From Pseudomonadota bacterium (GTDB taxonomy: Bacteria > Myxococcota_A > UBA796 > GCA-2862545): a stretch of 64,000 bases of DNA. A program made the position numbers and the translations under genes. Under the pieces are notes generated by a model. The model was not told the origin of the DNA, did no database searches, and worked only from the letters and a program-made list of their open reading frames with translations. Below are positions 35,812 to 55,446 of this stretch, one piece after another. The stretch spans positions 1-64,000 of the forward strand of contig JAGSGY010000022.1 in the NCBI GenBank assembly GCA_023954855.1, written 5' to 3'. Positions within the stretch are counted from its first letter, which is position 1. The number at the start of each line of letters is the position of its first letter.

Positions 35812-35903
35812 GCAAACATCGGCGGTGGATCGTCCGCTGCCGATAGGGCATGATAGGGGTGTTGGGTGACGCGTCCTCCTCTGCGTCCCTGTCGGAGTGC
35901 ACC

Positions 35904-36749
35904 ATGTCTAAGATTCAAGACCCTTGGGGCAACTACATCTTCTCGCTTGAGCTCGATGGCACCGAGGTCGGTCGCTTTACTGAGTGCTCAGGCCTGAAGT
36001 CGAGCGCCGAGGTCTTCGAGATCGAAGAAGGTGGCTACAACAGCGGCACGCGCAAGGTTGTCGGCCGTAGCAAGTGGGACAACATCGTGCTCAAGTACGC
36101 GACCTCTGCGTCGACCGTACTGCTCGAGTGGCGCGACAAGTACCTGCAGGATGGCTTCGACGGTCGCAAGGACACGACGGGTTGCATTGTCATGCGTGAC
36201 AACGCCGGTGCCGAGCTGCGTCGCTTCAACTTCGTCGGCTGCTGGCCCGTGTCCTGGGAAGGCCCAGCCTTCAACGGCGGCGGTTCCGACCTAGCCATCG
36301 AGAGCTTTGAGATCGCCCACGAGGGCATCTACATCGACAACGCCAAGCCGACCCCTCCGCCCACGCCCGAGCCGCTTCCCGACAAGATCGAGACCGAGCC
36401 GATTCAGTTCGAGTTCGACTCCGCCGAGCTCACGCCCGAGGGTGAGGCCACGGTCGACGACCTCGCCGATCAGCTCAAGGAGCACCCCGAGGTCGAGACG
36501 GTCTACATCGAGGGCCACACCTGCGACATGGGTAGCTTCGGCCACAACATGGGCCTGTCGATGCAGCGCGCCGAGTCGGTCAAGGCTCGGCTCAAGCCGC
36601 AGAACCCCGACAAGACCTACATCGCCACCGGCTACGCCTATAAGCATCCCGTGGCGTCGAACTCGTCGCAGGCCGGTCGCGAGAAGAACCGCCGCGTCGA
36701 CTTCTTCCAGTCCGAGCGGGCCGGAAAGCGTCCCGGCGAGCTCGCGTAG
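35904..36749 (+). CDS. Contractile-tail tube protein (gp19-like) fused to an OmpA peptidoglycan-binding domain
   Basis: 281 residues from the ATG at 35904, which has GGAG seven bases upstream. Residues 1 to about 145 match the phage T4 gp19/eCIS tube family: 'WGNYIFSLELDGTEVGRFTECSGL', 'EEGGYNSGTRKVVGRSKWDNIVLK' and 'AIESFEIAHEGI' follow the family order. A Pro/Glu linker (about 146-168) leads to an OmpA C-terminal domain: 'IQFEFDSAELTPEGE', 'IEGHTCDMGSFGHNMGLSMQRAESV' and 'GREKNRRVDFF', keeping the Asp and Arg residues that contact diaminopimelate. There is no signal peptide. No sheath, baseplate, spike or AAA gene is nearby, so it is an orphan. A 130-residue domain on every subunit would probably clash with a normal sheath, so an unsheathed ring or tube is possible. 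Confidence 0.85.
   Translation: MSKIQDPWGNYIFSLELDGTEVGRFTECSGLKSSAEVFEIEEGGYNSGTRKVVGRSKWDNIVLKYATSASTVLLEWRDKYLQDGFDGRKDTTGCIVMRDNAGAELRRFNFVGCWPVSWEGPAFNGGGSDLAIESFEIAHEGIYIDNAKPTPPPTPEPLPDKIETEPIQFEFDSAELTPEGEATVDDLADQLKEHPEVETVYIEGHTCDMGSFGHNMGLSMQRAESVKARLKPQNPDKTYIATGYAYKHPVASNSSQAGREKNRRVDFFQSERAGKRPGELA

Positions 36750-44475: not shown

Positions 44476-44479
<4 letters not shown>
44183..44479 (+). CDS. yhbY: YhbY-like RNA-binding protein (CRM domain)
   Basis: 98 residues from the ATG at 44183, which has GGGAGG five bases upstream. The single CRM domain is clear: '[33 protein letters not shown]' includes the GxxG loop GNAG, followed by '[12 protein letters not shown]' and '[10 protein letters not shown]'. 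YhbY associates with pre-50S ribosomal particles in E. coli. It shares its last four bases, CTAG, with the giant gene on the opposite strand. The product is likely cotranslated with TrmH from one transcript. Confidence 0.9.

Positions 44480-55446
<10,967 letters not shown>

What the first reader, a model, noticed from the sequence alone, without database searches (positions are those of the whole stretch)
35904..36749. Orphan contractile-tail tube protein fused to an OmpA peptidoglycan-binding domain
The N-terminal half is a gp19/eCIS-type tube subunit and the C-terminal half a complete OmpA-like domain, joined by a Pro/Glu linker. No sheath, baseplate, spike, TMP or AAA gene lies within the window. 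A 130-residue appendage on every subunit would probably clash with a sheath, so this may be a stand-alone ring or tube that binds cell wall. It has no signal peptide, so it would meet peptidoglycan only after export, lysis or delivery. I know of no described system with this architecture.
Basis: partly seen in the sequence, partly recalled or inferred. Interest (0 to 1): 0.82.

Follow-up and report, generated by a model that had tools for sequence, protein, structure and literature searches.

The report
Injection-system ring protein with OmpA domain
A spare copy of a ring protein from this bacterium's own phage-tail-like injection machine carries a domain of the kind that usually grips the cell wall, and related bacteria show signs that the copy still works with the machine, so it may be an optional part that ties the machine to cell wall.

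Summary
The fusion is real: residues 11-142 are a gp19 tube domain and 169-263 an OmpA domain. It is not an assembly error: full-length fusions (48-72% identical) occur in 7 other genomes of one uncultured Myxococcota family, and in none of the other genomes searched.

It is not a protein without a machine. The same genome has an eCIS on contigs C42 and C60. The fusion's gp19 domain is a duplicate of that operon's second tube protein, which by sequence is closest to a 6-copy baseplate protein (Cis1b, tube initiator) of the Streptomyces CIS. In two relatives the fusion and the operon's tube protein share a genome-specific N-terminal extension found in no other gene, held by protein-level constraint, not recent copying. 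In a third relative the orthologous locus supplies the only tube-initiator-type gene found.

Best reading: an unlinked alternative tube-initiator ring that places OmpA domains at the baseplate, parallel to the known LysM on Cis7. Cell-wall binding is inferred; the usual DAP-binding Asp is replaced in 7 of 8 members. New variant of a known kind.

The parts
35904..36749 (+). gp19-OmpA fusion gene, 281 aa
   Evidence: orthologues in 7 genomes
35894..35897 (+). likely Shine-Dalgarno GGAG, 6 nt before the start codon
   Evidence: sequence read directly; inference
35934..36329 (+). gp19 tube domain (residues 11-142), tube-initiator (Cis1b/Cis5) type
   Evidence: PF06841 E 5.1e-29; best PDB sequence match 9gtp_a, taken as Cis1b; fold match to 7aeb_Y, 9gtp_a, 6j0n_n; tree
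36339..36395 (+). Pro/Glu-rich linker (about residues 146-164), variable length among relatives
36408..36692 (+). OmpA-like domain (residues 169-263)
   Evidence: PF00691 E 3.9e-17; AF2 pLDDT about 80-97 over most of it; Foldseek top hit 6jfw PA0833
36522..36524 (+). Cys207 at the position of the usual DAP-binding Asp (Asp271 of A. baumannii OmpA)
   Evidence: ungapped alignments to OprF, PA0833, YiaD; Cys in 6 of 8 fusions
36567..36569 (+). Arg222, counterpart of the second DAP-binding residue (Arg286), invariant in the 8 fusions
   Evidence: roles of Asp271/Arg286 from PMC5974059
36714..36746 (+). short C-terminal tail with motif RxGxRxGE[LI], shared by 5 of 8 fusions

Best explanation
It is an unlinked, duplicated tube-initiator ring subunit (Cis1b/Cis5 type) of the cell's own eCIS that has gained a C-terminal OmpA domain. 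Inferred mechanism: it is made in the cytoplasm without a signal peptide and assembles as a hexameric ring at the base of the tube, in place of or beside the operon's own tube protein. It projects up to six OmpA domains on flexible linkers from the baseplate, where Cis7 already projects LysM domains. When the particle meets peptidoglycan (its own wall after lysis, or a target's wall), the OmpA domains dock the baseplate to it. Shown here: the fusion, its conservation, the near-complete eCIS in the genome, descent from that eCIS's tube protein, and genome-specific co-conservation with it in two relatives. Inferred: ring assembly, position, and peptidoglycan binding. My estimates: part of the eCIS about 0.75; OmpA used for wall docking, given that, somewhat likelier than a purely structural bracket.
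For: Own genome eCIS: C42 has Pvc16_N terminator, two sheaths, tube1, tube2, eCIS_core; C60 has CIS_tube+LysM, GPD hub, gp25, baseplate J, Tail_P2_I. The fusion's gp19 domain is 64-65% identical to tube2 and all fusions fall inside the family's tube2 clade (91/84), apart from tube1. Tube2's best solved relative is 9gtp_a, 6 chains, from the baseplate of the Streptomyces CIS; PMC12237407 deposits 9GTP and names Cis1b and Cis7 as the tube initiators. In G008 the tube2 domain is fused to a GPD hub. N-terminal extensions: in G010 and G013 the only two genes carrying each extension are tube2 and the fusion; in G010 71 of 84 residues match but only 33 of those 71 use the same codon, against 78 of 146 residues in the gp19 domain; in G013 48 of 82 residues, 21 of 48 codons. 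G011: tube2 is absent between sheath2 and the next operon gene, and its only detected tube2-type gene lies at the orthologous locus. OmpA parts form one clade (100/100) in the set compared.
Against: No structure or expression data. The gene is never next to the eCIS operon. Most eCIS-bearing genomes of the family and order lack the fusion. The DAP-binding Asp is Cys in 6 of 8 and Ser in one, while 17 of the 19 other own-genome OmpA domains with a readable motif have Asp. OmpA evolves faster than gp19 (NG86 dN/dS about 0.53 against 0.19). The shared extension exists in only 2 of the 3 fusion genomes whose tube2 has one; G003 lacks it on the fusion. Exact start codons of relatives are assumed.
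Confidence: 0.5

Rival explanations
1. The OmpA domain is a structural bracket only. Like the LysM of Cis7/Alg7, it contacts baseplate wedge proteins and stabilises an alternative baseplate; it does not bind cell wall.
For: Alg7 LysM interacts with peripheral wedges (PMC8894135); own Cis7 has LysM; the wall-binding Asp is replaced in 7 of 8 fusions; OmpA evolves faster than gp19.
Against: Arg222 and the fold core are invariant. Signal-bearing OmpA proteins elsewhere in the phylum also lack the Asp, so its loss does not show loss of wall binding.
Confidence: 0.27
2. Cargo: a tube-like ring that carries its C-terminal domain into the target, as evolved Hcp proteins do in T6SS. The OmpA domain would be the delivered part.
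For: Unlinked tube paralogue with a C-terminal extension, an arrangement known from T6SS (own knowledge).
Against: OmpA has no known catalytic activity; no neighbour is conserved across the fusions as an immunity gene would be; one OmpA lineage is kept across the family rather than varied C-termini.
Confidence: 0.1
3. Stand-alone ring or tube that binds wall without an eCIS.
For: No linked eCIS genes; no tube2 or sheath detected in G019 although it has the fusion.
Against: G019 is 81% complete and still has tube1; the other fusion genomes have sheath genes; extensions shared only with tube2.
Confidence: 0.07

Closest known systems
Cis1b (S. coelicolor CIS, 9GTP chain a) / Cis5, Alg5, Afp5, Pvc5 tube initiator
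   Same: gp19 domain along its full length; the best PDB sequence match of the gp19 domain and of tube2
   Different: carries a linker and OmpA domain; encoded away from the operon; exists beside a normal copy
Cis7 / Alg7 / Afp7 (CIS_tube PF19266 + LysM)
   Same: tube-like barrel followed by a C-terminal domain of a type often found in wall-binding proteins
   Different: another tube family (PF19266, not PF06841), LysM not OmpA, encoded in the operon; own genome has its own Cis7
T6SS TssL/TagL with OmpA-like domain
   Same: OmpA-like domain attached to a contractile machine to hold it to peptidoglycan; TagL domain 5m38 is a sequence and fold match
   Different: TssL/TagL belong to the membrane anchor complex (own knowledge), not to tube rings
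Thylakoid-anchored CIS of Anabaena
   Same: eCIS-like machine tethered through baseplate extensions (PMC8894136)
   Different: tethered to membrane by fibre and baseplate proteins, not by a tube ring

Membership tests
Phage_T4_gp19 / TIGR02241 tube family | profile match over curated cut-off | tested here: met
   101.2 bits vs 28.2; 89.6 vs 62.4
Tube initiator (Cis1b/Cis5) | closer to a 6-copy initiator than to the main tube | tested here: met
   9gtp_a 58.9 bits vs 7adz_1a 53.1 and 7b5h_AN 45.1; groups with tube2, not tube1. The margin over main tubes is small
Tube initiator (Cis1b/Cis5) | over the NCBIfam CIS5_fam equivalog cut-off | tested here: not met
   59.5 bits vs 260; the operon's tube2 (68.2) also fails, so the model is narrow and membership of that curated family is not claimed
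Tube initiator (Cis1b/Cis5) | one hexameric layer in the baseplate | not testable with these tools
   no multimer prediction or coordinates
eCIS component | encoded in an eCIS gene cluster | tested here: not met
   no eCIS gene beside any of the 8 fusions in the stretches read
eCIS component | genome encodes sheath, tube, baseplate and hub | tested here: met
   for the own genome; sheath in all other fusion genomes except incomplete G019
OmpA-like peptidoglycan-binding domain | Pfam OmpA match and fold | tested here: met
OmpA-like peptidoglycan-binding domain | DAP-contacting Asp and Arg | tested here: inconclusive
   Arg invariant; Asp only in the G013 member; Asp-less OmpA domains with signal sequences exist in the phylum

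The most novel reading that the evidence does not exclude
Some Myxococcota switch their eCIS between free and wall-tethered forms by swapping in an unlinked tube-initiator ring that carries six OmpA domains, a mode of CIS anchoring not described for T6SS, eCIS or thylakoid CIS.
Probability: 0.25. Interest if true: 0.75.

Novelty: new variant of a known kind. Interest (0 to 1): 0.52.

Why it matters
How contractile injection systems are held in place decides whether they are released, fired from inside, or kept on the wall. A tube-initiator paralogue with a wall-type domain, encoded away from the operon yet co-conserved with it, would be a modular way to change that. It also shows that eCIS parts in this group can be scattered through the genome, so operon-based surveys will miss some.

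Tried and rejected
Assembly error: rejected by 7 independent full-length relatives. Conserved operon partner: neighbours differ between genomes beyond partial vertical synteny. Recent gene conversion as the cause of shared extensions: synonymous codons are as diverged there as in the gp19 domain. Phage or plasmid origin: no record covers both domains. OmpA remnant downstream of the G011/G020 gene: none seen by eye in three frames. gp19-only tree to count fusion events: unresolved, 3 changes; the OmpA tree gives one clade, but was compared mainly with own-genome OmpA domains. Literature searches for this pairing found nothing. PADLOC hits are only the OmpA/MotB-like part of ZorB, not a defence system.

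Full report
Observation. The ORF at 35904-36749 (+) encodes 281 aa with a gp19 domain at 11-142 and an OmpA domain at 169-263, both well over Pfam cut-offs. AlphaFold2 on the 8-member alignment gives mean pLDDT 76 and pTM 0.49; most of the OmpA domain is confident, and gp19 loops 34-56 are not. Foldseek matches the OmpA part to PA0833 and other OmpA domains, and the gp19 part to PVC, AlgoCIS, AFP and Streptomyces tube and initiator proteins.

Conservation. Full-length fusions occur in 8 of 21 family genomes (G000, G001, G003, G006, G010, G013, G015, G019), in none of the 42 other genomes of the order, and in no further genome among 379 of the phylum. A scan of the 84,980-species collection returned the same seven relatives, all metagenome-assembled genomes; that scan used two gp19 peptide patterns, so distant independent fusions could be missed. 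Phylum Myxococcota is inferred from record titles. G000 and G001 differ with NG86 dN/dS about 0.19 in gp19 and 0.53 in OmpA: both parts appear constrained, OmpA less. The eight OmpA parts form one clade (100/100).

The machine. The genome holds an eCIS split over two contigs. C42: Pvc16_N terminator, sheath1, tube1, a small protein, sheath2, tube2, eCIS_core protein. C60: CIS_tube+LysM (Cis7), GPD hub, gp25, baseplate J, Tail_P2_I. Tube2 is closest by sequence to 9gtp_a, a 6-chain protein of the Streptomyces baseplate complex; the paper of that structure describes Cis1b and Cis7 as the two tube-initiator layers (PMC12237407). I infer that chain a is Cis1b from its copy number and gp19 fold. 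Tube1 is closest to main tube proteins.

Link between fusion and machine. First, descent: fusions lie inside the tube2 clade of the family, so the fusion began as a tube2 duplicate. Second, extensions: many tube2 proteins of the order appear to have long N-terminal extensions. Those of G010 and G013 are unrelated to each other (about 22% identity), yet in each genome exactly two genes carry the local version, tube2 and the fusion. In G010, 71 of 84 residues are identical while fewer than half of those residues use the same codon; G013 shows the same pattern more weakly. This fits two proteins held to the same partner in the same cell. It does not fit recent copying. G003 is an exception: its tube2 has an extension and its fusion does not. 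Third, substitution: in G011 the operon runs from sheath2 to the next gene without tube2, and the only tube2-type gene found lies at the locus orthologous to the G013 fusion, with shared neighbours, and groups with the G003 and G015 fusions (97/84). That copy has no OmpA domain. G011 is 80% complete, so this is suggestive only.

Mechanism. A gp19-type initiator forms one hexameric ring at the base of the tube (established for Cis1b/Cis5). Cis7/Alg7 shows that a barrel in this region can carry a C-terminal LysM reaching the wedges (PMC8894135). The fusion could place six OmpA domains there. Whether they bind peptidoglycan is open: the Asp that contacts DAP in A. baumannii OmpA (PMC5974059) is Cys in six members, Ser in one and Asp in one, the Arg is invariant, and Asp-less OmpA domains with apparent signal sequences are common in the phylum.

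Verdict. This is a new variant of a known kind: an eCIS tube-initiator paralogue with an OmpA domain, unlinked from its operon, with good comparative evidence for a role in the eCIS and an untested role in wall binding.

Noticed in passing
L034:1127-2932 (G008:C337): Tube2-type gp19 domain with N-terminal repeats fused to a GPD (VgrG-like) hub domain inside the eCIS locus; another tube fusion in the same family.
   Followed up: partly
L038, L039, L041 against L075, L077, L076: In G003, G013 and G010 the main tube gene (tube1) is missing between sheath1 and the small protein and lies elsewhere in the genome, so even a main eCIS part can be unlinked.
   Followed up: partly
L079:3377-4497 (G006:C178): Two nearly identical tube1 genes close together.
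   Followed up: no
L106, L115, L130, L140: Public MAG records titled Klebsiella pneumoniae carry eCIS genes that group with Myxococcota; the titles look wrong.
   Followed up: no
window 36339-36746 against 35904-36338: Third-position GC is 0.80 in the gp19 part and about 0.9 in the linker, OmpA and tail; the two halves keep different codon habits.
   Followed up: no
window 44476-55446 (-): A 3,656-aa open reading frame on the minus strand, not examined.
   Followed up: no
L004:8492-8854: Small 120-aa protein with a C-terminal CxxC zinc-ribbon-like end (weak matches), present between sheath1/tube1 and sheath2 in the eCIS operons read here.
   Followed up: no
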